Both the position numbers and the translations under genes were made by a program. Positions 168 through 46,229 of a DNA stretch of 46,492 bases are shown in pieces (the first letter of the stretch is position 1; each line of letters begins with the position of its first letter). The notes beneath the pieces were generated by a model, which was not told the origin of the DNA, ran no database searches, and saw only the letters and a program-made list of their open reading frames with translations. Source of the DNA: Mageeibacillus sp. UBA1243 (lineage in GTDB: Bacteria; Bacillota; Clostridia; UBA1212); assembly GCA_002308595.1 (NCBI GenBank), contig DBWH01000006.1, positions 1-46,492 of the forward strand. Direction: 5' to 3'.

Positions 168-1295
168 TTATTTTTTTATCAGCCTTGCCCTTATGAGCTT
201 AGAGCCGTGGGCGGGCACGCCTGTTACGAATATATCCTCGAACTCGCCGAGGCTCTTCATCTCCCAGAGGTCAAACAGCTTAAGCTTGACGCTCGTTGAG
301 CGGTTGAGGCCTATGTCAGTGAAGCTTACGGGGAAGCCGACTTCGTTGTCCGACATATTGAAATAGCCAAGGACAATGTCGCCGTTCTCCATGTGTCTCA
401 CCCAGACGTCTGCGTTGTCGGGTCTTCCGGTGAGGAGGTACGGCTGGCGGTATGCTGCGTCCTGGTTTACGGCAATGACAGCCTTGTTCTGCAGTATTGC
501 CTTGGTTTCCGGAGTCTGGTTTCTGATGTCGCTGCCGATCATGAGAGGCGAGCCGAAGAATGCCCAGATTGAGAAGTGTGTGCGGTACTCTTCAAGCGTG
601 CAGAAGTTCTCGCGGCCGACGTGTCCCTTGCCGCCCATGCCGACGATGAGCATATCCATGTCGTTGAAGCAGCCCTGGCCGTTGTACTCGTATATATTCT
701 TCTGGATGTTGTAGATGTCGCGGATTGAGCTGAAGCAGTCCACGATGTCGCCCGTTGAACGCCAGAGGTGCGAGCCTGTCGATTTGATCCATCTGTGGGT
801 TTCGTCTGCGCCCCAGCTGCAGGCTGAGAGGACGATGTCGCGGCCGCAATTGGCGAGTGCGAGACCCATTCTTCTGTAGAGCTTGGCGCCGTCCTCGGAC
901 TGAGGCTTGTAGCAGTAGTCAAGCTTGAGGTAGTCGATGCCCCACTCGGCAAACGTTTCGGCGTCAATGAATTCGTACTCAAAAGAAGCCGGGTAGCCTG
1001 CGCAGGTGTAGTTGCCGACACAGGAGTAGATGCCGAACTTGAGGCCCTTTGAGTGGACGTAGTCGGCAAGCGCTTTCATACCGTTCGGGAACTTGACGTG
1101 GTCGGGCACGAGGCGGCCTTTTTCGTCGCGCTTCAGTTCTGACCAGCAGTCGTCGATTACGAGATAATCGTAGCCGCAGTCAAGATAACCATCGTCAACC
1201 ATCCTGTCGGCAATCTCTTTGATGAGATTCTCGTCAATGTTATTGGCGAATGTGTTCCATGAGTTCCATCCCATTGGCGGTTTTGTTACTATCAT
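168..1295 (-). CDS. Alpha-galactosidase, glycoside hydrolase family 27
   Basis: This retaining alpha-galactosidase would remove terminal alpha-linked galactose from oligosaccharides such as raffinose-type sugars or galactomannan side chains. The 375-residue protein opens with the family signature PPMGWNSWNTF. It carries DDCW near residue 48, the nucleophile motif LKLDYC (Asp126) and the acid/base motif WRSTGDI (Asp183), then FNDMDML where most members have NDPDML. No signal peptide is visible, so it probably acts in the cytoplasm on imported oligosaccharides. The start is supported by GGAGG eight bases upstream. It is the last gene of a minus-strand unit after the HerA-like ATPase (30-bp gap) and the DUF4091 lipoprotein. 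GH36 enzymes are much longer, so GH27 is the better fit. Confidence 0.93.
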   Translation of the reverse strand: MIVTKPPMGWNSWNTFANNIDENLIKEIADRMVDDGYLDCGYDYLVIDDCWSELKRDEKGRLVPDHVKFPNGMKALADYVHSKGLKFGIYSCVGNYTCAGYPASFEYEFIDAETFAEWGIDYLKLDYCYKPQSEDGAKLYRRMGLALANCGRDIVLSACSWGADETHRWIKSTGSHLWRSTGDIVDCFSSIRDIYNIQKNIYEYNGQGCFNDMDMLIVGMGGKGHVGRENFCTLEEYRTHFSIWAFFGSPLMIGSDIRNQTPETKAILQNKAVIAVNQDAAYRQPYLLTGRPDNADVWVRHMENGDIVLGYFNMSDNEVGFPVSFTDIGLNRSTSVKLKLFDLWEMKSLGEFEDIFVTGVPAHGSKLIRARLIKK

Positions 1296-1325
1296 ACTGT
1301 TACCTCCATATTTAGTTTATATAAA

Positions 1326-2960
1326 TCACTTTTTATTTCCGAATAAACCCCGCAGGATTTCGTTGATGCCGGTCCTCATTGCGCCTGAAAGAGCGTTGGT
1401 GGCTGCCCTCTCGGCGATCTTGCCGGTCGAAATCTTTTTGCCGCCCGTGACGGAGCGGACAATGTTTGTGCTGACGCTTCTTGAAACCGACGACGATGCG
1501 CTCTTGACGGCTGTATTGGCGGATTTGCTGAGCGTCTTTACGACCTTGTTTTGCGCTGCCGTGTTTGACTTTTTGGTATTGGCGGCAGTCTTTTTGGTCT
1601 CCTGAGCCTTTTTGGCTTTTTCTTCCTTAGCCTTCTCCTGCTGCTGAAGTTCCTCTTCCTGCTGACGCATGAGCTCCTCGCGCGCTGCCATTATGATCTC
1701 GTAGGCTGACTCGCGGTCAATCGGCTCCCTGTACTTTTCGTCCATCTCGTCATTTCTGATGCACTCCTCGACAAGTTCCTCGGGCGCCGTACCCATAAAG
1801 CTCTGCGGAGGAAGAATGCGGACGATTTCAGCCATATCGGGCGCTCCTTTTGCATCAAGGAAGCTCACAACAGCCTCGCCAACGCCAAGGTTCATAATCG
1901 CCTCTTCGGTGTTGAATTTCGGGTTGGACCTGAACGCCCATGCCGCAGCTTTAATTGTCTTCTGCTCCGCGGGTGTGTATGCGCGAAGTCCGTGCTGAAT
2001 CTTGTTCGAGAGCTGCGCAAGAACCTCGTCAGGAATGTCCGACGGGCTCTGTGTGACGAAGTACACGCCAACGCCTTTCGACCTGATAAGCTTAACGACC
2101 TGAACTATCTTTCTGACAAGAGCCTTGGGTGCGTCGCTGAAGAGAAGATGCGCCTCGTCAAAGAAGAAAACAATCTTCGGTTTTTCAAGGTCGCCGACCT
2201 CCGGGAGGCGCTCAAACAGTGTCGAAAGCATCCAGAGAAGGAACGTCGCGTAAACCTTCGGGCTGTTTATGAGCCTTGAACTTGAAAGTATGTTCATGTA
2301 GCCGCGGCCGTCTTTGTCGGTCTTCAGCCAGTCGTTTATGTCAAGGTCAGCCTCTCCGAAAACGTGCTCTGCGCCCTCTTCAGAGAAGTTAAGAAGCGCT
2401 CTCTGAATGGCGCCAATGCTTGCCGTGGAAACGAGGCCGTACTCGTTTGAAAACTCTTTTCTGTTGTCGCCGACGTACTGGACCATCGCCTTGAGGTCCT
2501 TAAAATCAATGAGCTCAAGGCCCTGCTCGTCGGCAACCTTAAACACTACCGTAAGCACGCCCGCCTGCACGTCGTTAAGTTCGAGCAGTCTTGCAAGCAG
2601 CTGCGGCCCCATGTCTGTGACGGTCATTCTGACCGGAATGCCCTTTTCTCCGAAAATATCCCAGAATCTAACGGGGTAGGATTTGTACTCCCAGTTTTCG
2701 ATTTCAAAACTTTTGATGCGCTTCTGCATTGATTCCGAATCCTTGCCGGGAACGATCATGCCGGAAAGGTCACCCTTGACGTCGGCAAAGAAGACGGGCA
2801 CGCCTGAGTCCGAGAATGACTCGGAAAGCACCTTGAGCGTGGTGGTCTTGCCGGTACCGGAAGCGCCGGAGATTATGCCGTGCCTGTTGGCCATCTTGGG
2901 AAGGAGGAAAACCCTTCTGTCCTCGGAAAGTCCGATCCAGTTCTTTTCGTAAATGTACAT
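1326..2960 (-). CDS. HerA-like ATPase (DUF853 family)
   Basis: A 544-residue P-loop ATPase of the DUF853/YjgR type, related to the HerA-FtsK superfamily of hexameric DNA motors. Walker A is GASGTGKTT at residues 32-40 and Walker B with DEAH is at 265-271 (IVFFFDEAHLLF), followed by the sensor-like sequence FVTQSP. Beyond about residue 430 the protein becomes a Glu/Gln- then Ala/Lys/Ser-rich tail that looks coiled-coil to disordered. The cellular role of this family is poorly known, and a DNA-translocating or repair function is inference. GGGGAG lies 8 bases before the ATG. It sits oddly between two carbohydrate genes, 101 bp after the DUF4091 gene and 30 bp before the GH27 gene. Confidence 0.88.
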   Translation of the reverse strand: MYIYEKNWIGLSEDRRVFLLPKMANRHGIISGASGTGKTTTLKVLSESFSDSGVPVFFADVKGDLSGMIVPGKDSESMQKRIKSFEIENWEYKSYPVRFWDIFGEKGIPVRMTVTDMGPQLLARLLELNDVQAGVLTVVFKVADEQGLELIDFKDLKAMVQYVGDNRKEFSNEYGLVSTASIGAIQRALLNFSEEGAEHVFGEADLDINDWLKTDKDGRGYMNILSSSRLINSPKVYATFLLWMLSTLFERLPEVGDLEKPKIVFFFDEAHLLFSDAPKALVRKIVQVVKLIRSKGVGVYFVTQSPSDIPDEVLAQLSNKIQHGLRAYTPAEQKTIKAAAWAFRSNPKFNTEEAIMNLGVGEAVVSFLDAKGAPDMAEIVRILPPQSFMGTAPEELVEECIRNDEMDEKYREPIDRESAYEIIMAAREELMRQQEEELQQQEKAKEEKAKKAQETKKTAANTKKSNTAAQNKVVKTLSKSANTAVKSASSSVSRSVSTNIVRSVTGGKKISTGKIAERAATNALSGAMRTGINEILRGLFGNKK

Positions 2961-3005
2961 TCTGAAATCTCCCCTTAGTTAAGATTCAAAAAAATCTTCG
3001 TAAAC

Positions 3006-3013
3006 CGCCAATG
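3006..3013. repeat. Intergenic copy of the CGCCAATG word
   Basis: One exact copy of the dispersed octamer, in the 101-bp gap between the DUF4091 and HerA-like genes, 9 bp from the hairpin at 3022-3042. See the finding on the window-wide motif. Confidence 0.6.
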
Positions 3014-3021
3014 CGCCGGAA

Positions 3022-3042
3022 GCCGCCGAAACCTTCGGCGGC
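3022..3042 (-). terminator. GC-rich hairpin after the DUF4091 gene
   Basis: A perfect 9-bp stem, GCCGCCGAA with TTCGGCGGC, and a 3-nt loop lie 20 bp past the stop of the DUF4091 gene. On the minus strand no U tract follows at once (a T-rich stretch comes only about 30 nt later), so it may be an attenuating or 3'-protecting hairpin rather than a full terminator. Confidence 0.45.
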
Positions 3043-3061
3043 CGCCGATGCAAAAGACTCT

Positions 3062-5341
3062 TTATTTGCTCTTTAAAGCCGAAAGCATGTTTCCGAGAGC
3101 GATTCTCGTCTCCGTGAACAGCTCCGCATCGTGGTTCCAGTCTGTAAGAGATGTTGCGAGCGATCTGATTATGAGGTTTACCTTCTCCTCGCCGAGCTCT
3201 TTTTTCAGCATTGTCAGGTACTCAAAGTCCTCGATACCGTCTCTTACGATTTCAAGTCTCAGGCAGCCGACAGGTCCGTCGATACCGTAAGGCTTGCCGC
3301 AGTATATGAGGACACCGTTGCCGTATGACTTAACCGTGCCGTTTACGACCTCATATTTCGGGTCGATACCGTAGTTGTTCTCCTTGAACGCCCACTCGTT
3401 GCACATATAGTAGAGGAAGCCGTCAATGTTAAAAAGCTTCTGCAGCCAGAAAAGCTCTCTTGAGCCCACGCCCTCGCAGTTGATGAGAACAGTTGCCTCG
3501 GGTCCGTTCGGAACTCTCGTGACGTACCACCAGACCTCGTCTCCGCCCTCCTGCTCTTTCTTCATTCTCTCCGGGAACTCGCCAAGCTTTTTCTCTATAA
3601 GAGGCGTCATGTATATGTACGTTTTCGGGTTGCTGAGGTAGTCCTTCCAGGTGCTGAAGAAGAAGTTGTGCGGGCACCAGACGTTGACGTATTCCTTGAC
3701 GTACTCAAAGTAGTCGACCGATCCGTCGCCGGCAAGGTCCTCGGTATAATGCATCGGGATGATCATCTTGTATCCCGGGAAGTTCTTTTTAAGTATCTCG
3801 CCGTTTCTGTTGACGTTGTCGAGCATGCCCGTGTTGAGCGGCTCGTCAACGGGATAGAAGTAAGACTTTTCGAGCCATTCGGCCTTCTGCGAAAGGTATG
3901 AGTAGGCGGCGGTCACATTGGCGTCATTGAGGTCTGTCTTCCAGCCGAGTGCCTGAAAAGCCGTGACTCTCGGATTGTTGAGGTAGGAGATAACCCTGTC
4001 GTCGCCGAACTGTCCGTCGTTTGTGTTGTAAGGGATGTTGTACGAGCAGACCCTGTTTTCAAGCAGGTAGTCGTAGTACTTCCGGTAGAGGATGCCGCCG
4101 TCGCCCTCGTAGAGTTCGTGGTAGGCGTAAACGTTGAACCAGGAAAGATCCATGAGCGTTTTGCAGGAAGTTGCCTCGGGAAGCTCGAAATTCCAAACGT
4201 ACGTGAAAATCTCGGCTGTCTTTACGACATCGCCAAGGCCGTTCTTCACGTTGACAGTCGCCTTGTAAAGGCCCTCTTTCGAATCCGCCTTCGTGCCTGT
4301 TTTTATGACGAAAGATTTGCTCTTGTTCTTTGAAACGTTAAAACTTCCGGAAAGCGGGGGCAGCGGGTCAATGACGTTCTCGCCCTCGACTTCAAAATAT
4401 GTGCCCTCAAAAACGTCCGCGGGAAGTTTTGCCGAGCCGTCCTCGCTTACAAACTCGGAGACCTCGAGCGTGAGACCTTCGCGGGTTTCCTTGGCGGTAA
4501 GTATGAGCTGGCATGCCTCGAGTTCGTTCTTTGCAAGGTACATGCAGTAAGTGTCGGTGCCTGAAGCGCTGATGTCCTCCTCGGCGGTGCGCGTGAAGGA
4601 GTGGTTGAACTTCATGATGAGCGAAGAATCCTCGTTCGGAGCCTTAACGGGTTTGTAAGAGGTGTAGACGGCGGGAGCCGACGACCTGTAGTCTTTAAGG
4701 AGCTTGTCAAGTTCCTTCTGCTCGGCGGCGGTGAAAGCCTTGCCGGAAGCAGTCTTCTTCATGTAGGAGAGAGCGTCTTTTTCGGTCTTTAAGAAGATCA
4801 TCTCGCCGACGCAGCACGCCTCGCCTTTTGTGGTTGCGGTCTTTTCAAAGTCGAACCTGAAGAAAGAGTAGTCGCCCTGAAGTTCAGAAGCGCTGAAGTC
4901 AAAGAGAACGTAGCACCAGTCGTCCGACGTGTTGTCGTAGTAGGAGCAACGGTAGAGATTTGCGTCCGGGAAGAGGTTCCCGTTCACGTTGGCGAAAAGA
5001 TAGAACGAGTTGTCGTTGCAGTTTTTCGACTTAATCTTGAGAACGACGAACGGATATTCCGTGGAATTTATGTTCTTCCGGCCGGTGAGCGTCAGGTACT
5101 GCTGAAAATTGAAGGCGCAGTAAGGGTCCGACGCGTATTCGACGTTGGTGGTAAACCAGGGTGAACTGCCGGTGCCGGAGCCGTTGTACGAGATTTCGCA
5201 TTCATTGGCGAGGAAGAGTGTAGATTCAAGAGCACTTTTGTTGTTGAGACTGACTTTTATCGCGCCCGAAGCGTTGTTGCAGCCTGTGAAAAGGCAGATG
5301 ACCATTGATAAAGTGAGTAGTAAAGCAACAGCTTTTTTCAT
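3062..5341 (-). CDS. DUF4091-domain lipoprotein, probable glycosidase-related
   Basis: A secreted, lipid-anchored protein of 759 residues. The ATG at 5341 is chosen because it gives a clean lipoprotein signal (MKK, a hydrophobic stretch, then the lipobox LFTGC with Cys21) and has GGGGG upstream. An in-frame ATG 54 bases further up has no Shine-Dalgarno site and would put charged residues ahead of the signal. The C-terminal half looks like DUF4091, a TIM-barrel-type domain seen next to glycoside hydrolases and GH123-like proteins. The family ending is clear (LRLEIVRDGIEDFEYL). The N-terminal half looks like beta-rich carbohydrate-binding modules. It heads the unit containing the HerA-like and GH27 genes. 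Enzymatic activity is not established for the domain, so sugar binding or hydrolysis is inferred from context. Confidence 0.85.
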   Translation of the reverse strand: MKKAVALLLTLSMVICLFTGCNNASGAIKVSLNNKSALESTLFLANECEISYNGSGTGSSPWFTTNVEYASDPYCAFNFQQYLTLTGRKNINSTEYPFVVLKIKSKNCNDNSFYLFANVNGNLFPDANLYRCSYYDNTSDDWCYVLFDFSASELQGDYSFFRFDFEKTATTKGEACCVGEMIFLKTEKDALSYMKKTASGKAFTAAEQKELDKLLKDYRSSAPAVYTSYKPVKAPNEDSSLIMKFNHSFTRTAEEDISASGTDTYCMYLAKNELEACQLILTAKETREGLTLEVSEFVSEDGSAKLPADVFEGTYFEVEGENVIDPLPPLSGSFNVSKNKSKSFVIKTGTKADSKEGLYKATVNVKNGLGDVVKTAEIFTYVWNFELPEATSCKTLMDLSWFNVYAYHELYEGDGGILYRKYYDYLLENRVCSYNIPYNTNDGQFGDDRVISYLNNPRVTAFQALGWKTDLNDANVTAAYSYLSQKAEWLEKSYFYPVDEPLNTGMLDNVNRNGEILKKNFPGYKMIIPMHYTEDLAGDGSVDYFEYVKEYVNVWCPHNFFFSTWKDYLSNPKTYIYMTPLIEKKLGEFPERMKKEQEGGDEVWWYVTRVPNGPEATVLINCEGVGSRELFWLQKLFNIDGFLYYMCNEWAFKENNYGIDPKYEVVNGTVKSYGNGVLIYCGKPYGIDGPVGCLRLEIVRDGIEDFEYLTMLKKELGEEKVNLIIRSLATSLTDWNHDAELFTETRIALGNMLSALKSK

Positions 5342-5436
5342 ATGTGACCCCCAATTGAGTGTTGGAAGAACCGTCTTTCGGCCCTGCAGTTTCATGTAAC
5401 AGTTAGGGACTTAAGTTATTTCAAATTCTTCGATAC

Positions 5437-5466
5437 ATTTTACTACTTGGAGCGCTTCCGTGTCAA
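5437..5466 (-). promoter_or_regulatory. Sigma-A-type promoter for the DUF4091 gene unit
   Basis: On the minus strand, TTGACA (5466-5461) and TAAAAT (5442-5437) are separated by 18 bases. Transcription would start near 5430, giving a leader of about 90 nt before the ATG at 5341. No other strong promoter was seen before the HerA-like and GH27 genes. Confidence 0.75.
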
Positions 5467-5757
5467 CCGAAAGTGCCCTTGAGGAAGAGGCCTTCCCGCC
5501 TGCCGCAAATGCGCTCTTAGCCCTCTAAACCATCCGTTTAACAATCCTTCCGCACCCACACACGCCAATGTTTTTGTCCTATTTTTAGCAGACTCCACTC
5601 CCGGTAGAGTCGCATCCTCCGTCAGTGGAATCGGTATCTAATAATCTTCAAAGCGGTTTCTAATGTAATTCGGTTGTTCTTCCGGCCGATATATGGCAAG
5701 ATGGACGTGTCAGGTGAAAGCCTTGGCGGCAATTCATTTCGGGAAAGGAACGAAGTT
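5467..5757. other. Gene-free spacer
   Basis: This spacer between the divergent DUF4091 promoter and the SGNH hydrolase shows no credible coding frame. It holds an 8-bp hairpin with one wobble pair (5591-5611, GACTCCAC and GTAGAGTC) and one copy of the CGCCAATG word. No clear promoter for the plus-strand hydrolase was found. Confidence 0.4.
5563..5570. repeat. Intergenic copy of the CGCCAATG word
   Basis: An exact copy of the dispersed octamer in the gene-free spacer upstream of the SGNH hydrolase gene, about 100 bp from the -35 box of the DUF4091 promoter. Confidence 0.6.
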
Positions 5758-6447: not shown

Positions 6448-6465
6448 AATAACCGGTTTATGTGA

Positions 6466-6514
6466 AAAGCTGCGTCAGGCTTAAAAAAAATTCCCTGACG
6501 CAGCTTTCTTTTTA
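6466..6514. terminator. Rho-independent terminator between SGNH gene and hemZ
   Basis: A 14-bp perfect stem (AAAGCTGCGTCAGG with CCTGACGCAGCTTT) has a 14-nt A-rich loop and is followed on the plus strand by CTTTTTATT. It lies between convergent genes and probably serves both. Its T-rich tail overlaps the hemZ stop codon. Confidence 0.88.
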
Positions 6515-13772: not shown

Positions 13773-13780
13773 CGCCAATG
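13773..13780. repeat. Intergenic copy of the CGCCAATG word
   Basis: An exact copy of the dispersed octamer between the two rpsU-downstream hairpins. Confidence 0.6.
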
Positions 13781-16259: not shown

Positions 16260-16267
16260 CGCCAATG
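16260..16267. repeat. Intergenic copy of the CGCCAATG word
   Basis: An exact copy of the dispersed octamer, 2 bp beyond the rho stop codon. Confidence 0.6.
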
Positions 16268-18294: not shown

Positions 18295-18510
18295 TTTAAA
18301 ATTTTACTCCTTTAATTCTCGGGTTTTCTTTTTTAGTTCTCGGGATTTAAGTTTTTTTGATTTGCGCAGCGCATTGGCGATTTCATGCCGCCAATATCCT
18401 CGCCGCGTTTTTTGAGATTTTGGAAACGCTTTTTGAAAGACTTGATAAATAATAACCGGCTTTATTTACTGTACTATATTGAAACGATGAAAATGTTTTT
18501 TCCGGCAGTG
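18295..18510. other. rho 5' region, no gene
   Basis: The spacer between PFOR and rho has no credible coding frame. It contains the rho ribosome site, A/T-rich stretches, and the inverted pair of ATTGGCG words at 18373-18395. Possible -10-like sequences exist on the minus strand around 18460-18482 (TATAGT, TAAATA), but none has a convincing -35, so the rho promoter is not assigned. Confidence 0.4.
18373..18395. repeat. Inverted pair of ATTGGCG/CGCCAAT in the rho leader
   Basis: ATTGGCG (18373-18379) and CGCCAAT (18389-18395) form a perfect 7-bp inverted repeat with a 9-nt loop, about 80-100 nt before the rho start codon, within the likely rho leader. It could fold as RNA or act as a protein-binding dyad on DNA. 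Confidence 0.65.
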
Positions 18511-28028: not shown

Positions 28029-30848
28029 TCATTCTCCGCTGTTTTGCGGCAGAACTTTTTTGAGATATTCGCCCGTGTAGGATTCACCGTTTCCGGCAAC
28101 CTCCTCCGGTGTGCCCTTGGCGATAATCGTGCCTCCCCTGTCGCCTCCCTCGGGACCGAGGTCGATGATGTAGTCGGCCGATTTGATTACGTCAAGGTTG
28201 TGTTCGATGACAAGCACCGTGTTGCCCCCGTCGGTGAGCCTCTGGAGTATCTCGATGAGCCTCTTCACGTCGTCGGTGTGAAGGCCCGTGGTTGGCTCGT
28301 CAAGTATGTAAAACGTCCTTCCGGTCGCTCTCTTTGAGAGCTCCGTTGCAATCTTCACCCTCTGCGCCTCGCCTCCGGAGAGAAGCGTTGACGGCTGACC
28401 GAGTTTGAGATAGCCGAGGCCTACGTCGTTCATAGTGTTGATCTTGGCGGCAATTCTCGGAATGTCTGCAAAGAAGACCGCAGCCTCCTCGATGGTCATG
28501 TCGAGCACCTCGGCAATGTTCTTGCCCTTGTAGTGAACGCTTAGCGTCTCGCGGTTGTACCTCGCGCCTCCGCAGACCTCGCACGGAACCGAGATGTCCG
28601 GAAGGAAATGCATCGGTATCTTGAGGATTCCGTCGCCGGAGCAGGCCTCGCACCTGCCGCCCTTAACGTTAAAGCTGAACCTGCCGTTTTTGTAGCCCTT
28701 TGCCCTGCTCTCGGGGGTCATCGCGAAGAGTTCCCTGATGAGGTCGAAGGCGCCGGTGTACGTTGCGGGGTTTGACCTTGGCGTCTTTCCGATCGGCGAC
28801 TGGTCGATTACGACCGCCTTGTTGAGGTTTTCGAGGCCCTCCATGGAGTCGTACTCGCGCGTTTTGGGTCTAGCGCCGTTGAGTTCGCTCTGAAGCGAAT
28901 CCGCGATAATCATGTTGACAAGTGAGCTCTTGCCGCTGCCGCTGACGCCCGTGACGCACGTGAAAACGCCGAGAGGAATGTCAACGTCAATGTTTTTCAG
29001 GTTGTTCTGACGCGCGCCCTTAATCTTAAGGTATGCGCCCGAACTCTTTCTTCTGGTTTTCGGAACGGGTATCGAAAGCTTTCCGGAGAGGTATTTCCCC
29101 GTGAGCGAATCGTCGCACTTCATGATTTCCCCGGGTGTTCCCGCAAAGACTATTTTGCCGCCAAGGGATCCCGCGCCCGGTCCTATGTCTATAATATAGT
29201 CCGACTCCCTCATCGTATCCTCATCGTGTTCGACGACTATGAGAGTGTTTCCGAGGTCGCGCAGCCTCTTCAGCGTCTCGATCAGCTTTCCGTTGTCCCT
29301 CTGGTGGAGGCCTATGGACGGCTCGTCGAGTATATATATAACGCCCGTGAGACCCGAACCGATCTGCGTCGCAAGCCTTATTCTCTGCGACTCGCCGCCC
29401 GAAAGCGTTCCGCTCGTTCTTGAGAGCGTGATGTAGTCAAGTCCGACTGCCTTTAAAAAGCCCAGTCTTGCCTTAATCTCTTTCATGATGGGTGCCGCGA
29501 CAGGCGCCTTCATACCGTCAAATTCAACGCCCTCAAAGAATGTGAGCGATTTTTCGACAGACTTATCGCAGAGCGATGCGATGTCGATTCCGCCGATTCT
29601 GAACGCGAGGCTCTCCTTTTTCAGTCTCTTCCCTCCGCACATCTCGCACGGTCTTGACTTCATAAAGGACTCGTAATGCGTCCTCATCATCTCGCTCTTG
29701 GTTTCAGCGTACCTGTTCTTAAGCGAAGGCATGACGCCCCAGAAAGCGTGTCTGTAAGTGTTTCCTTCGTAGTGGAACGTGACCTTCTCGCCGTCCGTAC
29801 CTTCCATAATGATGCGCCTTGCAGGCTCCGGAATGTTCTTCCACGGTGTGTAAAGCGAAAAGCCGTACTCGTCGCCGAGGCCCTGCATTTTCGCGGCAAA
29901 GTACGAGTCGGAGCAGTTGAATCCCATCGGCTTGATGCAGCCCTCCGCGAGCGAAAGGTTCCAGTCCGGCACGACAAGGTCCTCTGAGAACTCTGTGATG
30001 ACGCCAAGGCCCGTGCACGCGGGGCATGCGCCGAAAGGATTGTTGAACGAGAAAAGCCTTGGCGTCGCCTCGGGTATGCTTATGCCGCAGTCGGGGCAAG
30101 CGTAGTCGCTGCTGATGAGTACCGCCTCGCCCTCCTGAGGAATGAGCTTGAGAAGACCCTTGGCGAGTCCCGTAGCGACCTCTATGGAGTCCGCGATGCG
30201 CCTCTCCGCGCCTTTTTTTACGACAATTCTGTCAACGATGACGTCGATGTCGTGCTTTCTGTTCTTGTCAAGGGCAATCTCCTCGCCGAGGTCGTAGAGT
30301 ATGCCGTCAACGGTAACCCTCGCAAATCCGCTCTTCCTGTAGCCCTCAAGCTGCGCCCTGTACTCGCCTTTCCTTCCGCGAACGACAGGTGCCGCAATCA
30401 TGAGCTTCGTGCCCTCGTCATACCTCATCACTGTGTCGACCATCTGGTCAACGGTCTGCGCGGTTATCTTCTTGCCGCAGCTTGGGCAGTGCGCGTCGCC
30501 GCACCTTGCGTACAAAAGTCTGAGATAGTCATATATCTCCGTAACGGTTCCGACCGTGGATCTCGGGTTCTTCGAAGTCGTCTTCTGGTCGATGGCAATC
30601 GCCGGCGAAAGACCGTCAATACTGTCAATATCAGGCCTCTCCATCTGTCCGAGGAACATTCTGGCATACGAAGAAAGGCTCTCGATGTAGCGCCTCTGTC
30701 CCTCCGCATAAACGGTGTCAAACGCAAGAGAACTCTTTCCCGATCCGCTGACGCCAGTAAACACGACAAGCTTGTCCCTCGGTATCCTGACGTCAATATT
30801 CTTGAGGTTGTTCTCCCTCGCCCCTCTTATTACAATTTCGTCCTGCAT
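28029..30848 (-). CDS. uvrA: Excinuclease ABC subunit A
   Basis: The damage-sensing ATPase of nucleotide excision repair, 939 residues, full length. It has two ABC modules: Walker [10 protein letters not shown] (32-40) and a second GVSGSGKSS, signatures [11 protein letters not shown] and [11 protein letters not shown], and zinc-finger cysteines CPSC, CPDC..CPAC and CEAC..CEVC. Interaction with UvrB is expected through the usual domain. It is translated 67 bp after uvrB in the same direction, the normal uvrB-uvrA pairing. ACAGG lies 7 bases before the ATG. It is the last gene of the long frr-to-uvrA run. Confidence 0.97.
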
Positions 30849-30874
30849 ATCTTAACCTGTGATCTTTATTGACA

Positions 30875-30882
30875 CGCCAATG
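30875..30882. repeat. Intergenic copy of the CGCCAATG word
   Basis: An exact copy of the dispersed octamer in the 67-bp uvrB-uvrA gap. Confidence 0.6.
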
Positions 30883-30915
30883 CGCTTCCGCGCCCGCGCA
30901 CCTGTTTCAAAGTCG

Positions 30916-32976
<2,061 letters not shown>

Positions 32977-39275: not shown

Positions 39276-39302
39276 TAATCTTTAAAAAATATTTAAAGAT
39301 TA
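39276..39302. other. Perfect 11-bp A/T-rich inverted repeat
   Basis: TAATCTTTAAA and TTTAAAGATTA flank a 5-bp centre between uppS and cdsA. It may be an operator or a weak RNA hairpin. It ends 44 bp past the uppS stop and 65 bp before the cdsA start. Confidence 0.6.
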
Positions 39303-39345
39303 ACCGTTGCATTTTCGGTGTATCGGCGGGTTCTCAAAACCGCAC

Positions 39346-40104: not shown

Positions 40105-40124
40105 GTTTTTATCATTCTTCTAAC

Positions 40125-40182
40125 ACACGAAAATGACAGGCCGCAAAAGACAGGTTAAATCCCGCAGCTTGTCATTTTGTGT
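40125..40182 (-). promoter_or_regulatory. Long imperfect hairpin in front of uppS
   Basis: ACAC-(G)-AAAATGACA-G-GCCGC (40125-40144) pairs with GCAGC-T-TGTCATTTT-GTGT (40164-40182): 18 pairs with one bulged base, one A·C mismatch and one wobble in the minus-strand RNA, and a 19-nt loop. It ends 20 nt before the uppS ATG, close to its weak ribosome site. No U tract follows, so it is not a normal terminator. Confidence 0.65.
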
Positions 40183-40185
40183 TCG

Positions 40186-40193
40186 CATTGGCG
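40186..40193. repeat. Intergenic copy of the CATTGGCG word
   Basis: An exact copy of the dispersed octamer, 3 bp from the uppS-leader hairpin and 6 bp from a second hairpin (AAACGC/GCGTTT, 40200-40220). Confidence 0.6.
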
Positions 40194-40267
40194 TCTGCCA
40201 AACGCCCTGAGAAAGCGTTTATGCTACGGCCTTTAAGACACAATTATTGCCCCTTACGGACGGCTCA

Positions 40268-40828
40268 TCAGAGTTCCATGAGTTCCTTGTCCTTGCGAGC
40301 CACGACCTTGTCGATTTCTTCGATGTGCTTGTCGGTGAACTGCTGGATGTCTTTCTCGGACTGCTTCTGGTCGTCCTCGGTGATGACGGAGTTCTTCTTC
40401 TGGTTCTTGAAGTACTCGACGGCGTCGCGTCTGATGGAGCGGATGGCGACTTTTGCGTCCTCACCCATCTTTTTGACCTGCTTGGCGAGTTCAAGACGTC
40501 TCTCCTCGGTAAGTGCGGGGAACACGAGCTTGATGGATTTACCGTCGTTGGAAGGATTGATGCCGAGATCGGACTTCAGGATCGCTCTTTCAACTTCTTT
40601 GAGCATCTTGGCTTCCCAGGGCGTGAAGACGAGAAGTCTCGCCTCCGGCACGCTTACGTTTCCGACCTGCGTAACGGGAGTCTCAACTCCGTAATAGTCA
40701 ACACTGATTTTATTCAAAACTGCGGGATTTGCTCTCCCCGCTCTTATCTCAGCCAGTTCTTCCGTGAGAAGACTGATGGTTTTATCCATTTTTCCTGTAT
40801 AAACATCATATTCTTTTTTATCTATCAT
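40268..40828 (-). CDS. frr: Ribosome recycling factor
   Basis: Splits post-termination ribosomes together with EF-G. The 186-residue protein has the expected length and the family blocks EIRAGRANPAVLNKISVDYYG (split at residues 28-48), FTPWEAKMLKEVERAI and RSIRRDAVEYFKN, ending in the basic helix KVVARKDKELMEL. The ATG at 40828 gives the standard N-terminus MIDKKEYD. GGGGG is about 9 bases upstream. A clear promoter lies about 50 bp ahead. The usual upstream partners tsf and pyrH are missing; a glycogen operon ends there instead. Confidence 0.97.
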   Translation of the reverse strand: MIDKKEYDVYTGKMDKTISLLTEELAEIRAGRANPAVLNKISVDYYGVETPVTQVGNVSVPEARLLVFTPWEAKMLKEVERAILKSDLGINPSNDGKSIKLVFPALTEERRLELAKQVKKMGEDAKVAIRSIRRDAVEYFKNQKKNSVITEDDQKQSEKDIQQFTDKHIEEIDKVVARKDKELMEL

Positions 40829-40873
40829 GATGAAAACCCCCAAATTGTATTCGAGCCGGCTGCTCACTGTTTA

Positions 40874-40888
40874 TGTGAATATATCACA
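40874..40888. promoter_or_regulatory. Operator-like dyad over the frr -10 box
   Basis: TGTGA-ATATA-TCACA is a perfect 5-bp inverted repeat whose centre is part of the -10 element. The arms resemble CRP/FNR- or Rex-type half sites, but the 5-bp spacing differs from those consensus sites. Confidence 0.4.
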
Positions 40889-40906
40889 AAACAGCGAATT
40901 TGTAAA
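40878..40906 (-). promoter_or_regulatory. Promoter of the frr-to-uvrA run
   Basis: Minus-strand TTTACA (40906-40901), 17-base spacer and TATATT (40883-40878); start near 40870, leader of about 45 nt. Confidence 0.8.
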
Positions 40907-40941
40907 GGGTCACGAAGGCCTAAGAAAGCCGTTTTCTGCCC

Positions 40942-40963
40942 TCTTCAAGCGGTCTTCAAGCGG
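40942..40963. repeat. 11-bp tandem repeat, two copies
   Basis: TCTTCAAGCGG occurs twice head to tail in the gap between the amidohydrolase gene and the frr promoter, just before a CGCCAATG word at 40969. Confidence 0.65.
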
Positions 40964-40968
40964 TCTGA

Positions 40969-40976
40969 CGCCAATG
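40969..40976. repeat. Intergenic copy of the CGCCAATG word
   Basis: An exact copy of the dispersed octamer 9 bp beyond the amidohydrolase stop codon. Confidence 0.6.
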
Positions 40977-40984
40977 AGTTTCCT

Positions 40985-41800
40985 CTATTCAAACGCCCTT
41001 CCGTGGCGCGCAAGCAGTGAAGCCGCGTTTTGATACCTGATTTTTGTAAGATCATCCTCAGAAAGCCCGAGTTTCTCAATAAAAGAAAGCTCCCTTTCGG
41101 GTGTGCTCCACGGGCAGTCGCTTCCGAAAAGTATTCTGTCCGCGCCGTGCGCTTTTATTATGTCCGAAGCCTCTTTTTCGGTGATATAGCCAAGGCCGAA
41201 AGCCGTGTCAAAATAGACCGGAAGCCCGCAGAGGTCCGAAAGCACGCTGTCGCTCTGCATCGAAGCTCCCCAGTGGGCAAGGACAACGTCGTTTCCGGTG
41301 AACGCGCCAAGGGCATTGGCGGCATCCTTGAGGCGCCTCGGGGAGGACCTGTCAACATCCTCAAAAGATATGTCTGAGCCTGCGTGGAAAAGGACTATGA
41401 AGCCAAGCTCGCGGACTTTGTCGTAAAGCTTTGCGAGGCGCGGGTCGTCAACGTAAAAATCCTGAAAATACGGGTGAAACTTGATGCCCGAAATACCGCT
41501 CTCCCTGAGCCTTAAAAGTTCGTCCTCCGCTTCGTCGGCAAACGGCGCAACGGAGCCGAAAGAGACCACACTGCCGCCGTTGATTGAGATTGCAAAGTCA
41601 TTTACGTTGTGCATTCTCTTGGCGTCAGTCGAGATGTTGTTGACAACAAACATGTCAACGCCCTGCTCCTTAAGCAGCGTCGAGAGACCGCCGAGGGTGC
41701 CGTCCGTGTACGGTTTGATGCCCCCCGTCGCCGAGAGGCCGCTGACCGCTTTTTGTGCTATTTTATCGGGATAACAGTGTGTGTGAAAATCGATGACCAT
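40985..41800 (-). CDS. Amidohydrolase-family metal-dependent hydrolase
   Basis: A 271-residue TIM-barrel hydrolase of the amidohydrolase-2 (PF04909) type. Metal-site motifs are DFHTHCY (His6, His8), IKFHPYF, FHAGSD, LAHWG and LFGSDCPW. Family members include decarboxylases and lactonases, and the substrate here is unknown. The ATG begins one base after the stop of the GH13 gene, with no Shine-Dalgarno site, so translation is almost certainly coupled. It is the last gene of the glycogen operon. Confidence 0.85.
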   Translation of the reverse strand: MVIDFHTHCYPDKIAQKAVSGLSATGGIKPYTDGTLGGLSTLLKEQGVDMFVVNNISTDAKRMHNVNDFAISINGGSVVSFGSVAPFADEAEDELLRLRESGISGIKFHPYFQDFYVDDPRLAKLYDKVRELGFIVLFHAGSDISFEDVDRSSPRRLKDAANALGAFTGNDVVLAHWGASMQSDSVLSDLCGLPVYFDTAFGLGYITEKEASDIIKAHGADRILFGSDCPWSTPERELSFIEKLGLSEDDLTKIRYQNAASLLARHGRAFE

Positions 41801-41801
41801 A

Positions 41802-43760
41802 TCAGATTTTTTTGTAGATTGCGCAGCCGTTTGTGATTGTAAGAGATACCTTGCCGTCTTCGCCGCAGGTTACGGTTGCGTCTTCCTCCGCGCCGAAGAG
41901 AGGCTCGTATGAGCCCTTTTCAAGCTCGAGTTCGACTTCGGTTTCCGGCTCGCTGCCGCGGCTTATAACCACGACCGCCTCGTCACTGCCGAGGGTCCTT
42001 TTGTATGCAAGAACGTCCTGCATCGGGGTGCTTAAAAACTCAATTTCGCCTTTTACAAGGCAGGGGTTCTTCTTCCTGATTCCGGCAAGCGCCGCAAACA
42101 CCGAGATCATGTTTTTATCTTCGCGGCCCCACGGATATGTGCGCCTGTTGTCGGGGTCCTCACCGCCCTCAAGGCATGTCTCATCTCCGTAATAGACAAG
42201 GGGAACTCCGGGGAACGTGAACATGACGGCAGCATAGTTTGCGACGTACCTTCTCGCAAGAGCCTTTTTGCCTCCCGCTGCCTCAAGCATCGCGGTCATG
42301 AGCCTTTTGACGTCGTGGCTGCCTGTCATATTGACGAGCGCATAGTAGTTTTCGCGCGGGTAGTTTTCCTTGAGCGAAAGGAACCTTTCGGCCGTTTTGT
42401 CCGCGCCGGCATCTCCGCCGAAGAAAGCAAGAAGTATCTTTCTGAACGGGTAATCCGTAACTGTGGAGAGCTCGCGCTCCGTGAAATACGACCTGAGTTT
42501 TCCGTAGCTGACTTTTGTGGAGGCGTCCTCCCAGACCTCGCCAAGGAGAACCGGGTCTAAACCTGTCTCTGCGGAGACCTCTTTGCATGCATTGGCGAGT
42601 TCCTTAATAAACCTGTCCGGAAGCTCGTCGGCAACGTCAAGTCTGAAACCGGCAACACCTTTCCTCAGCCAGTGCTTCACAACGGAGTCATCGTCGCGCG
42701 CGATAAAGTCAAGGTAGCCCGGGGCAAGCTCGTTAACGTTCGGAAGCACGTCAACGCCCCACCAGCAGTCGTAGCTGTCGTCACTCTCCTCCGAGAACCT
42801 GTACCAGTCCCTGTATTTGGAGTTTTTATTCTTGTAGGCACCGCCGCCGTATTTGCCTAATTTATCGAAATAAATGCTGTCCGAGCCCGTGTGGCTGAAC
42901 ACGCCGTCAAGCATGATCTTAACGTTGTCCTTAGCGCTCACGTAAAGCAGGAGATCCATCGCCGGGTCGCCGCCGAGGAGACCGTCAACGTGCATATAGT
43001 CTTCGGTGTCGTAGCGGTGGTTGCTCGCCGCCTTGAAGACCGGATTGAGGTAGATTACATTGGCGCCGAGAGCCTCGATATAAGGCAGCTTTTCGGAAAC
43101 GCCCGAGAGGTTGCCGCCGTGAAAATCCCAGCGCACAACGTCGTTTTCGGCGTTCTTGATGTACATCGGAAGGTCGTCCCACGTGCCGTACATGAACGAG
43201 TTTGGCTTCTGCTCGGCAAGCGCGTCGTAGCCTTTGCAGAACCTGTCGGGGAAAATCTGGTAAATGACAGACTTTTTGAACCACTCGGGCACTTTAAGGC
43301 CCTTTTTGTGGACCGTCACGGTGTAGTAATTGCCGTCAAGCCCTTCCCTGCAGGCTCCGATACCGCCAATGCATTCCTCATTGTTCCCGTAAAACAGATT
43401 TATGTCGCGGCCGTCCTCGCGCACGACAAAGTGAAAGCCGTAAAAATAAACTCCCTGCTTTTCACAGTTAAGAGTGCACGAAAAAACTGTTTTGAGGCGC
43501 TTTCCGTGCTCGGTTTCGGTTACATTGGCGGCTTCATGGGCAAGAGGAATCGCTGACACAACCGGCTCGAAGGTTTCCTTTTCGGACTCATCTTCGGTGC
43601 CGAAAAAGCGCAAAGAAAGCTCCGCCAGTTTGATCTCTGCCGGATTGTCGAGGTTGTCCTCGTAGCTTTCTATTGCGAGCGTGACTTTTTCGCCGGCCGG
43701 AACGGAACCGAAGGGACTCCTGAAAGATTCCGACCGCGAGTTATGCAAAAAAGTGATCAT
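41802..43760 (-). CDS. GH13 alpha-glycosidase (cyclomaltodextrinase/neopullulanase type)
   Basis: A 652-residue alpha-amylase-family enzyme. An N-terminal beta domain (1-155) precedes the barrel, which opens with WFKKSVIYQIFPDRFCKG (160-177). Catalytic residues are Asp375 in GFRLDVADE, Glu408 in LLGEVWED and Asp483 in TGSHDVKR. The N-terminal domain, cytoplasmic location (no signal) and DGVFSHTG block fit cyclomaltodextrinase, neopullulanase or maltogenic-amylase subfamilies. In this operon it probably trims maltodextrins released from glycogen. AAAGG lies before the ATG. Confidence 0.9.
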   Translation of the reverse strand: MITFLHNSRSESFRSPFGSVPAGEKVTLAIESYEDNLDNPAEIKLAELSLRFFGTEDESEKETFEPVVSAIPLAHEAANVTETEHGKRLKTVFSCTLNCEKQGVYFYGFHFVVREDGRDINLFYGNNEECIGGIGACREGLDGNYYTVTVHKKGLKVPEWFKKSVIYQIFPDRFCKGYDALAEQKPNSFMYGTWDDLPMYIKNAENDVVRWDFHGGNLSGVSEKLPYIEALGANVIYLNPVFKAASNHRYDTEDYMHVDGLLGGDPAMDLLLYVSAKDNVKIMLDGVFSHTGSDSIYFDKLGKYGGGAYKNKNSKYRDWYRFSEESDDSYDCWWGVDVLPNVNELAPGYLDFIARDDDSVVKHWLRKGVAGFRLDVADELPDRFIKELANACKEVSAETGLDPVLLGEVWEDASTKVSYGKLRSYFTERELSTVTDYPFRKILLAFFGGDAGADKTAERFLSLKENYPRENYYALVNMTGSHDVKRLMTAMLEAAGGKKALARRYVANYAAVMFTFPGVPLVYYGDETCLEGGEDPDNRRTYPWGREDKNMISVFAALAGIRKKNPCLVKGEIEFLSTPMQDVLAYKRTLGSDEAVVVISRGSEPETEVELELEKGSYEPLFGAEEDATVTCGEDGKVSLTITNGCAIYKKI

Positions 43761-43805
43761 TTTGAGCCTTTTAGCTTTAATTTTTATTTAAAGCAATATT
43801 ACCTA

Positions 43806-46229
43806 TTAAAATGCGGGTTTTACGCCCCAGATTTCGTCGGCGTACCTTCTGATCGTATTGTCGGATGAGAAGACGCCCGAGCATGCGATGTTGACGGCGC
43901 CCATTCTGCCCCAGCGGTCCTTGTCCCTGAAGAGTGCATCCGCCTTCTCCTGAGCCTTCACGTATGCGTCAAAGTCGCGCAGAGTGAAATACGGGTCGTT
44001 GTCGACAGTGAGGTGGTTCTTTATGAGGTCAAACTCGCCCGGAGCCGCACCGAAGCCTGTCGATATCTGGTTTATGATTCTTCCGAGCCTCGGGTCGTGC
44101 GCAATGGTCTTCATCGCGTCGTAGCCGCCGAACTTCTGGTAGTTTATGACCTCCTCTGACGAGAGACCGAATATGATGATGTTGTCGTCGCCGACTTCAC
44201 CGTGAATTTCCACGTTAGCTCCGTCCATCGTCGCGACAGTAACCGCGCCGTTCATCATGAACTTCATGTTGCCGGTTCCGGAGGCCTCTTTGGAGGCAGT
44301 CGAAATCTGCTCACTGATGTCGCCCGCAGGAATCATTATCTGCGCAAGGCTGACGCCGTAGTTCGGCATGAACACGACCTTGAGCTTGCCGTCGCAGCGC
44401 CTGTCGTTGTTTACGATATCGGCAACGGTATTGATGAGCTTGATGGTCTGCTTGGCGATAATGTAGCCCGGAAACGCCTTGGCGCCAAAGATAAATGTCC
44501 TCGGAGCGATGTCAAGGTTCGGATTGTCGCAGATTCTGTTGTAAAGGTCGATGATGTGGAGCACGTTCAGGATCTGCCTCTTGTACATGTGAAGACGCTT
44601 CACCTGGATGTCGAAGATCGAGTCCGGGTCGACCGCGATACCGTAATTGTCAAGTATAAACGCACCGAGCCTCTCCTTGTTCGAACGCTTGATTTCCTGC
44701 ACTTTTGCGACAAATTCTTTATCGTCGCAGTGAGGCTTGAGGTCCTTCAGGAGCAGCGGGTTCTTCTTCCAGCTGTCGCCAATGGTATTGTCAATGAGGT
44801 TCGCAAGCTTCGGGTTTGCCTGAATGAGCCAGCGCCTGTGGGTGATGCCGTTCGTCTTGTTGTTGAACTTTCCGGGGTAGAACTCGTGAAAATCCTTGAG
44901 TTCCTGGTTCTTCAGAATCTCGGTGTGGAGCGCCGCGACGCCGTTTACGCTGTGGCTTCCCACGATCGCGAGATGAGCCATTTTCACCATGTCATCCTGG
45001 ATAATGGACATTGCGCTGAGCTTGCCCCAGTCGCCGTTGTAGCGCCTGGCGACATCCGCGCAGAAACGTCTGTTAATCTCCTCGACGATCATGTAGATAC
45101 GGGGCAGGAGATGCCTGAACATGGGAACGCGCCACTTTTCAAGAGCCTCGGCAAGGATTGTGTGGTTTGTATAGGCAATGGTATTGACCGTCACGTTGAA
45201 CGCATCGTCCCACTCTACGCCCTCCTCGTCAACGAGTATGCGCATGAGCTCGGCAACCGCAAGAGCCGGGTGCGTGTCGTTTACGTGAATCGCAACGTGC
45301 TTGTCAAGCTCTGTGACAGAGATTCCGTTCTTCTTGGCGTCTCTCACGATGGTCTGGATGCCCGCGCTTGTGAAGAAATATTCCTGCTTGAGTCTGAGGA
45401 GCTTTCCTCTCTCTGTAGAGTCGTCGGGATAGAGGACGCTTGTGATGGACGAAACCGCATACTGCGCCGCCTGTGCCCTCTCGTAGTCGCCCTTTGAGAA
45501 CGTGCTGAAGTCAAACGCAGCTCCGTCGGTCTCCGCGCTCCAGAGCCTCAATGTGTTTACGATGCCGTTCTCATAACCCGGCACAGGCATATCATAAGGA
45601 ACTGCGAGAATAGGCTCGTAGTTTGTGTGCTCAGCATGGAACTTTCCGTTCTCGTCAACGCGAAGGCTGCAGTCACCGCCAAACTTTACGATGCAGGCCT
45701 TGTCGTCGCGCCTTGACTCCCATACGTTCTGGATTTTGAGCCAGTTGTCGGGTGTCTCAATCTGATTTCCGTGCACGATTTCCTGTCTGAAAAGACCGTA
45801 TCTGTACCTGATTCCGATGCCCATGCCCGAAATGCCGAGCGAAGCCATGGAGTCGATGAAGCATGCAGCGAGTCTTCCGAGGCCGCCGTTGCCGAGTCCC
45901 GCGTCGGGCTCAATCTCTTCAAGGCAGGGAAGCGAAAGTCCGAGCTCCGAAAGGCCCTCCTCCACAACGTCCTTGATTCCAAGGTTCAGCATGATCGAGT
46001 CAAGCAGTCTTCCGATGAGAAATTCCATCGAAAAGTAGTAAACCGTCTTTTTCTTTTCAGCTGCGTTGCGTGTCTCGGTCTCGTACCAGTCGAGAGCCAT
46101 GTATTCTTTTATAAGCGTGCCGAGTGCAATATATCTTTCGGTGTCCGAGCTTCTCTCGACGTCCGTCCTGTAGAGCTGCATCAGCTTCGCTTTGAAGTCG
46201 TTTTTGAATTTGTTTTTATCTATAAGCAT
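43806..46229 (-). CDS. glgP: Glycogen/maltodextrin phosphorylase
   Basis: Releases glucose 1-phosphate from alpha-1,4-glucan using PLP and phosphate. The 807 residues have YFSMEFLIGRLL near the start, EPDAGLGNGGLGRLAACF, HVNDTHPALAVAELMR and the PLP region EASGTGNMKFMMNG with Lys656. The length is standard. The ATG at 46229 is preferred because it gives the usual N-terminus and sits 8 bp past the glgA stop. A GTG 21 bases further up, overlapping glgA, has GAGGAA four bases ahead and cannot be excluded. Confidence 0.95.
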   Translation of the reverse strand: MLIDKNKFKNDFKAKLMQLYRTDVERSSDTERYIALGTLIKEYMALDWYETETRNAAEKKKTVYYFSMEFLIGRLLDSIMLNLGIKDVVEEGLSELGLSLPCLEEIEPDAGLGNGGLGRLAACFIDSMASLGISGMGIGIRYRYGLFRQEIVHGNQIETPDNWLKIQNVWESRRDDKACIVKFGGDCSLRVDENGKFHAEHTNYEPILAVPYDMPVPGYENGIVNTLRLWSAETDGAAFDFSTFSKGDYERAQAAQYAVSSITSVLYPDDSTERGKLLRLKQEYFFTSAGIQTIVRDAKKNGISVTELDKHVAIHVNDTHPALAVAELMRILVDEEGVEWDDAFNVTVNTIAYTNHTILAEALEKWRVPMFRHLLPRIYMIVEEINRRFCADVARRYNGDWGKLSAMSIIQDDMVKMAHLAIVGSHSVNGVAALHTEILKNQELKDFHEFYPGKFNNKTNGITHRRWLIQANPKLANLIDNTIGDSWKKNPLLLKDLKPHCDDKEFVAKVQEIKRSNKERLGAFILDNYGIAVDPDSIFDIQVKRLHMYKRQILNVLHIIDLYNRICDNPNLDIAPRTFIFGAKAFPGYIIAKQTIKLINTVADIVNNDRRCDGKLKVVFMPNYGVSLAQIMIPAGDISEQISTASKEASGTGNMKFMMNGAVTVATMDGANVEIHGEVGDDNIIIFGLSSEEVINYQKFGGYDAMKTIAHDPRLGRIINQISTGFGAAPGEFDLIKNHLTVDNDPYFTLRDFDAYVKAQEKADALFRDKDRWGRMGAVNIACSGVFSSDNTIRRYADEIWGVKPAF

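What the first reader, a model, noticed from the sequence alone, without database searches (positions are those of the whole stretch)
849..44784. A short word, (C)MTTGGCG, is iterated across the whole window in coding and non-coding DNA
Hand counting gives about 129 TTGGCG/CGCCAA sites where about 23 are expected for a random hexamer. ATTGGCG/CGCCAAT occurs about 53 times (about 6 expected), CATTGGCG/CGCCAATG about 39 times (1.4 expected), and CTTGGCG about as often as ATTGGCG; TTTGGCG and GTTGGCG are much rarer. ATTGGCG is split about evenly between strands (29 and 24). In genes it occurs in all three frames (as Ala-Asn, Ile-Gly and Gln-Trp or His-Trp contexts), so codon use or one peptide cannot explain it. 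About 11 of the 53 ATTGGCG copies lie in roughly 3 kb of non-coding DNA, about three times the coding density, and many spacers hold exactly one. This resembles cyanobacterial HIP1 or DNA-uptake words. Nothing like it is known to me for Clostridia.
Basis: partly seen in the sequence, partly recalled or inferred. Interest (0 to 1): 0.75.

Follow-up and report, generated by a model that had tools for sequence, protein, structure and literature searches.

The report
Genome-wide DNA-uptake-like word in Clostridia
A short DNA word, CATTGGCG or CCTTGGCG, is stamped thousands of times over the genomes of a small clade of Clostridia that carry type IV pilus genes, and it most resembles the self-recognition tags used for DNA uptake by Neisseria, which the papers seen here report only from two Gram-negative families.

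Summary
The 8-mer C[A/C]TTGGCG occurs 82 times in the window and 2,739 times in the 1.82 Mb draft genome (152 for the reversed pattern). It exceeds a synonymous-codon shuffle about 7-fold in genes and a trinucleotide model about 38-fold outside genes. It is strand-balanced, scattered, and anchors a contiguous motif of 12-13 bp. Among 31 genomes of the order, only this one and three close relatives carry it strongly. These four are also the only ones of six genus members with a full-length PilB-type pilus ATPase; two PilB-bearing genomes of another family lack the word. No tested DNA-methyltransferase family (four) is shared by the four. One relative adds a second variant, CATTGGTT, as Neisseriaceae have dialects. 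Words are conserved about twice as often as control words in two of three comparisons. Best explanation: a DNA uptake sequence, spread by pilus-mediated uptake that favours tagged DNA, plus recombination. The pilus link is one phylogenetic contrast, no receptor was identified, and uptake was not tested. Confidence about 0.5. Papers seen place uptake sequences only in Neisseriaceae and Pasteurellaceae.

The parts
1272..44784 (.). The set of 82 C[A/C]TTGGCG words (40 on +, 42 on -), the first starting at 1272, the last ending at 44784; 75 inside ORFs of about 80 aa or more, 7 outside
   Evidence: exact pattern positions listed; 74 coding sites against 11.1 by synonymous shuffle with ORFs of about 100 aa or more
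3006..3013 (-). word between genes (upstream of the HerA-like gene)
5563..5570 (-). word between genes
13773..13780 (-). word between genes, upstream of the RecJ-like gene
16260..16267 (-). word between genes, just past the end of the Rho-like gene
18372..18379 (+). word between genes
30875..30882 (-). word between uvrA- and uvrB-like genes
40186..40193 (+). word between called ORFs
28029..32976 (-). uvrA- and uvrB-like genes carrying 6 and 2 words: example of housekeeping genes that hold the word
   Evidence: Pfam; word counts

Best explanation
C[A/C]TTGGCG (core of a contiguous motif of 12-13 bp, GCMTTGGCGDYDT) is a DNA uptake sequence of a clade of Clostridia. A type IV pilus, probably through one of its pilins, binds free DNA best when it holds the word. 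The pilus retracts, ComEA and ComEC bring the DNA in, and RecA-type recombination replaces the chromosomal copy. Because tagged fragments enter preferentially, copies with the word replace copies without it. The word therefore builds up on both strands wherever protein sequence allows it, mostly at synonymous sites and between genes. Shown: the word, its genome-wide excess over codon-aware and Markov nulls, strand balance, conservation, a second variant in one relative, and presence of T4P, ComEA-type and ComEC genes. Inferred: that the pilus takes up DNA, that the word is what it recognises, and that uptake bias causes the accumulation.
For: Genome-wide, strand-balanced: 1351/1388 CMTTGGCG, reversed control 66/86; spacing near exponential, CV 0.99. 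Coding 565 against 84 by synonymous shuffle, non-coding 86 against 2.3. Information above background runs from -2 to about +10 with no flanking tracts, the contiguous form reported for DUS (passage of PMC12616744). Full-length PilB-type ATPase (E < 1e-120) in 6 of 31 genomes of the order, including the four word-rich genomes of the genus (G000, G005, G007, G008) and neither of its other two members (G004, 97% complete; G006, 79%). The locus holds three prepilin-like genes, a pilM-like gene, pilD, pilC, pilB; hits that I read as PilT in G005, G007, G008. ComEC in 29 of 31 and ComEA-type HHH_3 in 9 of 9. G005 uses a second dispersed variant, CATTGGTT (55 coding against 2.9; 9/3.3 in G000, 3/4.7 in G008, 0/0.9 in G007), as Simonsiella muelleri carries two DUS dialects (PMC3630211 section 6). 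Words are kept in 62 of 102 aligned sites against G008/RUG12790 and 28 of 88 against G005; control words 50/149 and 25/155. Clostridial T4P can touch DNA: C. [quoted passage not shown]
Against: The four word-rich genomes are one tight clade (UvrA 91-94% identical to G000 in the three others; G006 80%, G004 78%), so the T4P link is one evolutionary contrast. G010 and G011 carry PilB without a strong word in samples of 160 and 123 kb. ComEA and ComEC are also in word-poor relatives, so they do not discriminate. No receptor found: the three minor pilins are net acidic in G000, G008 and G005, and models of two of them have no PDB match at E <= 0.001. Unlike in Neisseria, close inverted pairs are at most slightly in excess (within 80 bases 38 opposite, 24 same orientation, fewer pairs in all than the roughly 84 expected) and convergent spacers are not enriched (G000 only). 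One-mismatch words are in mild excess overall (1200 against 894), not depleted; depletion at position 3 is also seen in word-free G004 and word-poor G001. Codon-atypical genes still show 5.8-fold excess against 7.3. Relatives without the word show a milder excess of CMTTGNCG (CATTGACG 39 against 11 in G001), so part of the pattern may be an older sequence-context bias. Conservation is absent in the small G007/RGIG10266 set (4 of 25 against 9 of 40). Competence of these bacteria is not known to me.
Confidence: 0.5

Rival explanations
1. A non-uptake DNA-processing protein (nucleoid, segregation or repair factor) reads the word at many sites, and selection maintains it; the T4P genes are coincidental clade markers.
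For: Word conserved beyond controls in two of three comparisons; T4P link rests on one clade.
Against: Density 1.5 per kb, near-exponential spacing and no orientation leave little positional information; a second variant in one species fits a fast-evolving receptor better.
Confidence: 0.2
2. A sequence-specific mutation or repair bias makes the word without selection, as proposed for HIP1 through methylation-guided mismatch repair.
For: The excess reaches codon-atypical genes (5.8-fold); a milder CMTTGNCG excess exists in relatives.
Against: An 8-12 base specificity is hard to get from mutation alone; no DNA methyltransferase of four Pfam families is common to the four word-rich genomes, and G005 and G007 have none over the cut-off.
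Confidence: 0.15
3. A methylation or restriction-related word (HIP1-like orphan methyltransferase, or restriction protection).
For: Another highly iterated word, HIP1, tracks methyltransferases (PMC4390886 passages).
Against: Non-palindromic; PF01555 in none of the four word-rich genomes; PF07669 in none over the cut-off save one hit of G000 that reaches it only with its neighbours; PF00145 only in G008; PF02384 only in G000 and G008. PF02086 and other families were not searched, and G000 is 77% complete.
Confidence: 0.05
4. A Chi-type recombination hotspot of an AddAB/RecBCD-like enzyme.
For: Short, non-palindromic, G-containing, frequent word.
Against: Orientation is nearly even with respect to genes (467 sense, 533 antisense for TTGGCG), majority gene strand (350:321) and G-rich strand (349:322); Chi works in one orientation and is usually skewed (recalled).
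Confidence: 0.06
5. Codon or codon-pair preference only.
For: 845 of 1000 coding TTGGCG sites are in one phase.
Against: 7-fold above synonymous shuffle, about equally in sense and antisense, and densest outside genes (86 against 2.3; 16 words in 8.3 kb of G000 with no ORF of 40 aa in any frame).
Confidence: 0.03

Closest known systems
DNA uptake sequences (DUS) of Neisseriaceae and the ComP minor pilin
   Same: Thousands of copies per roughly 2 Mb genome on both strands; contiguous motif of about 12 bp; variants between species (dialects); one species with two; host carries T4P, ComEA-type and ComEC genes
   Different: Different sequence; Clostridia, not a Gram-negative family; no clear excess of inverted pairs at gene ends; no ComP homologue recognised; uptake untested
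Uptake signal sequences (USS) of Pasteurellaceae
   Same: Iterated, dispersed, strand-balanced core of 8-9 bp; T4P-linked
   Different: USS extends into a T-rich tract beyond its core (extended USS in PMC12616744); no such tract seen here
HIP1 of cyanobacteria
   Same: Iterated 8-mer at high density
   Different: HIP1 is a palindrome tied to orphan methyltransferases (PMC4390886); this word is not palindromic and no shared methyltransferase was found
Chi sites
   Same: Frequent short non-palindromic word
   Different: No orientation preference here

Membership tests
DNA uptake sequence (DUS/USS) | Extreme genome-wide over-representation | tested here: met
DNA uptake sequence (DUS/USS) | Both strands, dispersed in genes and spacers | tested here: met
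   1351/1388; spacing CV 0.99
DNA uptake sequence (DUS/USS) | Contiguous motif of about 10-13 bp (DUS) | tested here: met
   information content -2 to about +10 around non-coding TTGGCG
DNA uptake sequence (DUS/USS) | Dialects that follow phylogeny | tested here: inconclusive
   CATTGGTT strong in G005 only among seven genomes counted; too few genomes to test against a phylogeny
DNA uptake sequence (DUS/USS) | Host encodes T4P and DNA import genes | tested here: met
   PilB in the four word-rich genomes, ComEC, ComEA-type HHH_3; the last two also in word-poor kin
DNA uptake sequence (DUS/USS) | Inverted pairs at terminators (common in Neisseria) | tested here: not met
   62 pairs within 80 bases (38 opposite, 24 same orientation) against about 84 expected; convergent spacers 1.57 per kb, tandem 2.39 (G000 only)
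DNA uptake sequence (DUS/USS) | Cognate receptor pilin | tested here: inconclusive
   three prepilin-like genes found, acidic, no significant structural match for the two modelled
DNA uptake sequence (DUS/USS) | Word raises DNA uptake or transformation | not testable with these tools
   needs culture
HIP1 | Palindromic GCGATCGC with orphan methyltransferases | tested here: not met
   word non-palindromic; no shared methyltransferase of four families
Chi | Orientation bias along replication or genes | tested here: not met
   (draft contigs, replichores not known)

The most novel reading that the evidence does not exclude
A self-recognition tag for DNA uptake has arisen independently in a Gram-positive (clostridial) type IV pilus system, with its own dialects and an unknown, non-ComP receptor: a third origin of uptake sequences and, as far as the papers found here tell, the first outside the two known Gram-negative families.
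Probability: 0.45. Interest if true: 0.9.

Novelty: new variant of a known kind. Interest (0 to 1): 0.74.

Why it matters
[quoted passage not shown]). An uptake word in Clostridia would show that such tags evolve in other T4P systems too. It would imply that these bacteria, known here only from metagenome assemblies, exchange DNA by transformation. It would give a genus with and without the word for testing how tags arise and vanish, and offer a handle for transforming hard-to-manipulate anaerobes.

Tried and rejected
HIP1/methylation: rejected as the main reading after four methyltransferase families gave no shared enzyme. Chi/polar signal: rejected on orientation. Codon bias: rejected by synonymous shuffles and spacers. 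Terminator hairpins: no clear excess of inverted pairs. Relic words in G006: the 3.3-fold excess over the reversed control shrank to 26 against 20 under the codon-aware null, so G006 is not counted as enriched; the reversed control overstates. The codon-aware null was run for 10 genomes only (G000, G001, G002, G004-G008, G010, G011); the other genomes of order and class were judged by raw counts and the reversed control. Prediction that the PilB-bearing G010 and G011 have their own word: not borne out (best hexamer CCTTGT, about 2-fold). G004's TTCCCG excess (697 against about 260 in genes) was considered as another dialect; its flanks are loose, so I do not claim it. Proteome effect: Ala-Asn is rarer in G004, G006 and G001 than in the word clade, but not in word-free G010 and G011, so not used. 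Receptor by structure: pilin-like models from three-sequence alignments, mean pLDDT 77, no PDB match at E <= 0.001. Rows dropped before counts: genes holding masked bases (N) were left out of the shuffles (292 of 310 kept for G000); alignments under 300 bases were left out of the conservation counts. Literature: ten searches. Their listings show no report of an uptake word in Clostridia or of this word as an iterated word; two searches found no paper, several listings were cut (15 of 199, 12 of 51 and 10 of 47 papers shown), and most subscription papers are not held. Papers were seen as passages (PMC12616744, PMC6370729, PMC9556784, PMC12236230, PMC1939737, PMC4390886, PMC5031613, PMC4906244, PMC7811141) or as abstract plus sections 6 and 11 (PMC3630211). 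The class-wide density ceiling of about 250 per Mb was worked out by eye from the table, whose genome sizes are rounded.
Full report
What was checked. The window is part of contig C64 of a 1.82 Mb draft genome (G000, 77% complete, 0.72% contamination). Whole-genome counts: CATTGGCG 1,549 against 56 for the reversed pattern; CMTTGGCG 2,739 against 152. The window's genes with Pfam matches are mostly housekeeping: HerA-like, RelA/SpoT, RecJ, Rho, PFOR, WhiA, UvrA, UvrB, DapF, GcpE, Dxr, CdsA, ribosome recycling factor. Named relatives of its RelA/SpoT protein (four loci of three MAGs) are titled 'uncultured Ruminococcus sp.' and 'Clostridia bacterium', two of the three with 'Rumen' in the title.

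Nulls. With longest ORFs of about 100 aa or more taken as genes in 417 kb of G000, CMTTGGCG occurs 565 times in genes against 84 expected when synonymous codons are shuffled within each gene, and 86 times outside genes against 2.3 from a trinucleotide model. G008 gives 316/41 and 31/1.1, G005 143/25 and 7/0.6, G007 59/14 and 2/0.3. Among relatives without the strong word, G006 gives 26/20, G001 35/17, G004 23/36 in genes. In stretches of G000 with no ORF of 40 aa in any frame, 16 words lie in 8.3 kb; in G008 4 in 4.9 kb. CATTGGCG is the most frequent 8-mer of the G000 sample, masked runs apart. My gene calls are crude and sometimes on the wrong strand.

Shape of the motif. Around non-coding TTGGCG in G000 (147 sites), information above background runs from position -2 to about +10 and then stops; the logo reads G-C-[A/C]-TTGGCG-[A/G/T]-[C/T]-[A/G/T]-T. 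Words with one mismatch are in mild excess overall (1200 against 894 in G000 genes). They are in excess at positions 1, 2 and 6 of the 8-mer (2.25, 1.56 and 2.70 times expectation in G000) and depleted at 3 and 5 (0.41, 0.49). The excess at position 6 is also seen in word-poor G006 and G001 (2.1, 2.8) and the depletion at position 3 in G004 and G001 (0.64, 0.66), so these two are at least partly background. In G000 the words are near-exponentially spaced (CV 0.99; fewer than expected under 20 bases apart), without orientation relative to the majority gene strand (350:321) or the G-rich strand (349:322). Pairs within 80 bases number 62 (38 opposite, 24 same orientation) against about 84 expected.

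Distribution. In the order (31 genomes) only G000, G005, G007 and G008 are strongly enriched (raw counts; codon-aware counts for ten genomes). In 391 genomes of the class the next densest has about 250 per Mb against 1,506 in G000 (worked out by eye; G005, G007 and G008 were not in that draw). UvrA identity to G000 is 94, 92 and 91% for G008, G005 and G007, 80% for G006, 78% for G004. The word-rich genomes therefore look like one clade; no tree was built.

Machinery. PF00437 finds a full-length PilB-type ATPase (E < 1e-120) in 6 of 31 genomes: the four word-rich ones plus G010 and G011 of another family. The best hits of the other 25 are much weaker (E 4e-62 or worse), which I take to be other ATPases. 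In G008 the locus holds three prepilin-like proteins (one with a sub-cut-off ComGE match, E 0.0025; one with a sub-cut-off N-methylation match), a pilM-like protein (my reading; no Pfam match), PilD, PilC and PilB. The G000 and G005 loci are alike; that of G007 was seen in part. The G000 pilus genes lie on contig C1, which itself holds 54 CATTGGCG in 55 kb, so they belong to the same genome. Hits that I read as PilT are in G005, G007 and G008, not seen in incomplete G000. ComEC is in 29 of 31 and ComEA-type HHH_3 in 9 of 9 family genomes, word-poor ones included. G010 and G011 show no strong word in samples of 160 and 123 kb: T4P may be necessary but is not sufficient.

Methylation. In the nine family genomes, PF01555 is absent from all four word-rich genomes. 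PF07669 gives no match over the cut-off in them by itself; one G000 hit reaches it only with its neighbours. PF00145 is found in G008 only of the four, PF02384 in G000 and G008 only. G005 and G007, both at least 96% complete, have none over the cut-off. Other methyltransferase families were not searched. A HIP1-type methylation account is therefore unlikely.

Evolution. In aligned DNA (blocks of 300 bases or more), 62 of 102 G000 words are still words in G008 or RUG12790 and 28 of 88 in G005; control words C[A/C]TTnnCG keep identity in 50 of 149 and 25 of 155, permuted words in 245 of 915 and 113 of 854. The small G007/RGIG10266 set shows no excess (4 of 25 against 9 of 40). G005 adds CATTGGTT, dispersed in unrelated flanks (55 in genes against 2.9; 9/3.3 in G000, 3/4.7 in G008, 0/0.9 in G007). 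In Neisseriaceae, DUS dialects differ between species and one species carries two at once (PMC3630211 sections 6 and 11).

Reading. The anatomy (contiguous motif, thousands of copies, no orientation, a second variant, conservation) together with the pilus genes points to an uptake sequence that spreads by biased transformation, the molecular-drive model discussed in PMC1939737 (passages). Clostridial pilins can bind DNA: PilJ and PilW of C. difficile do in vitro (passages of PMC9556784). What is not shown is function. The T4P link is a single phylogenetic contrast. The receptor is unknown (minor pilins acidic; two models without significant PDB match). The Neisseria-type inverted pairs are missing. 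A milder CMTTGNCG excess in relatives suggests an older sequence-context bias on which the word grew. I put the uptake reading at about one in two, well ahead of each rival. Papers seen as passages place strong uptake specificity in two Gram-negative families; the listings of ten searches show no report for Clostridia, with the limits of the library and of cut listings.

Noticed in passing
G004 sample, L052-L070: TTCCCG is about 2.6 times expectation in genes and 122 against 46 outside; TTCCGGGAA-like words are also in excess outside genes. Possibly another genome word in a relative without PilB.
   Followed up: partly
G005 sample, L091-L100: Non-coding words such as TACTTATTAC and GGGGTGCCGCT in strong excess, probably interspersed repeats.
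   Followed up: no
G001 sample, L081-L090: Non-coding words such as ATGAGTCAGGGGGCAGG and CCACAGCGTC (merged by me from overlapping 8- and 9-mers) in strong excess, probably interspersed repeats.
   Followed up: no
G008 sample, L033-L051: Non-coding words around GCGACTTGCGTAAAGAGCC (merged by me from overlapping 8-mers) in strong excess, probably a repeat.
   Followed up: no
L020 4935-11405 +: Two adjacent, very long prepilin-like proteins (about 660 and 1490 aa) with type IV pilin-like N-termini in G000, possibly pilus-tip adhesins or DNA receptors.
   Followed up: no
L161 1240-4002 -: A 920 aa protein with a GAP1-N2 domain lies next to pilB in G008, with a like-placed relative in G000, G005 and (cut) G007.
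   Followed up: no
G001, G006 samples: A milder excess of CMTTGNCG words exists in relatives without the strong word.
   Followed up: partly
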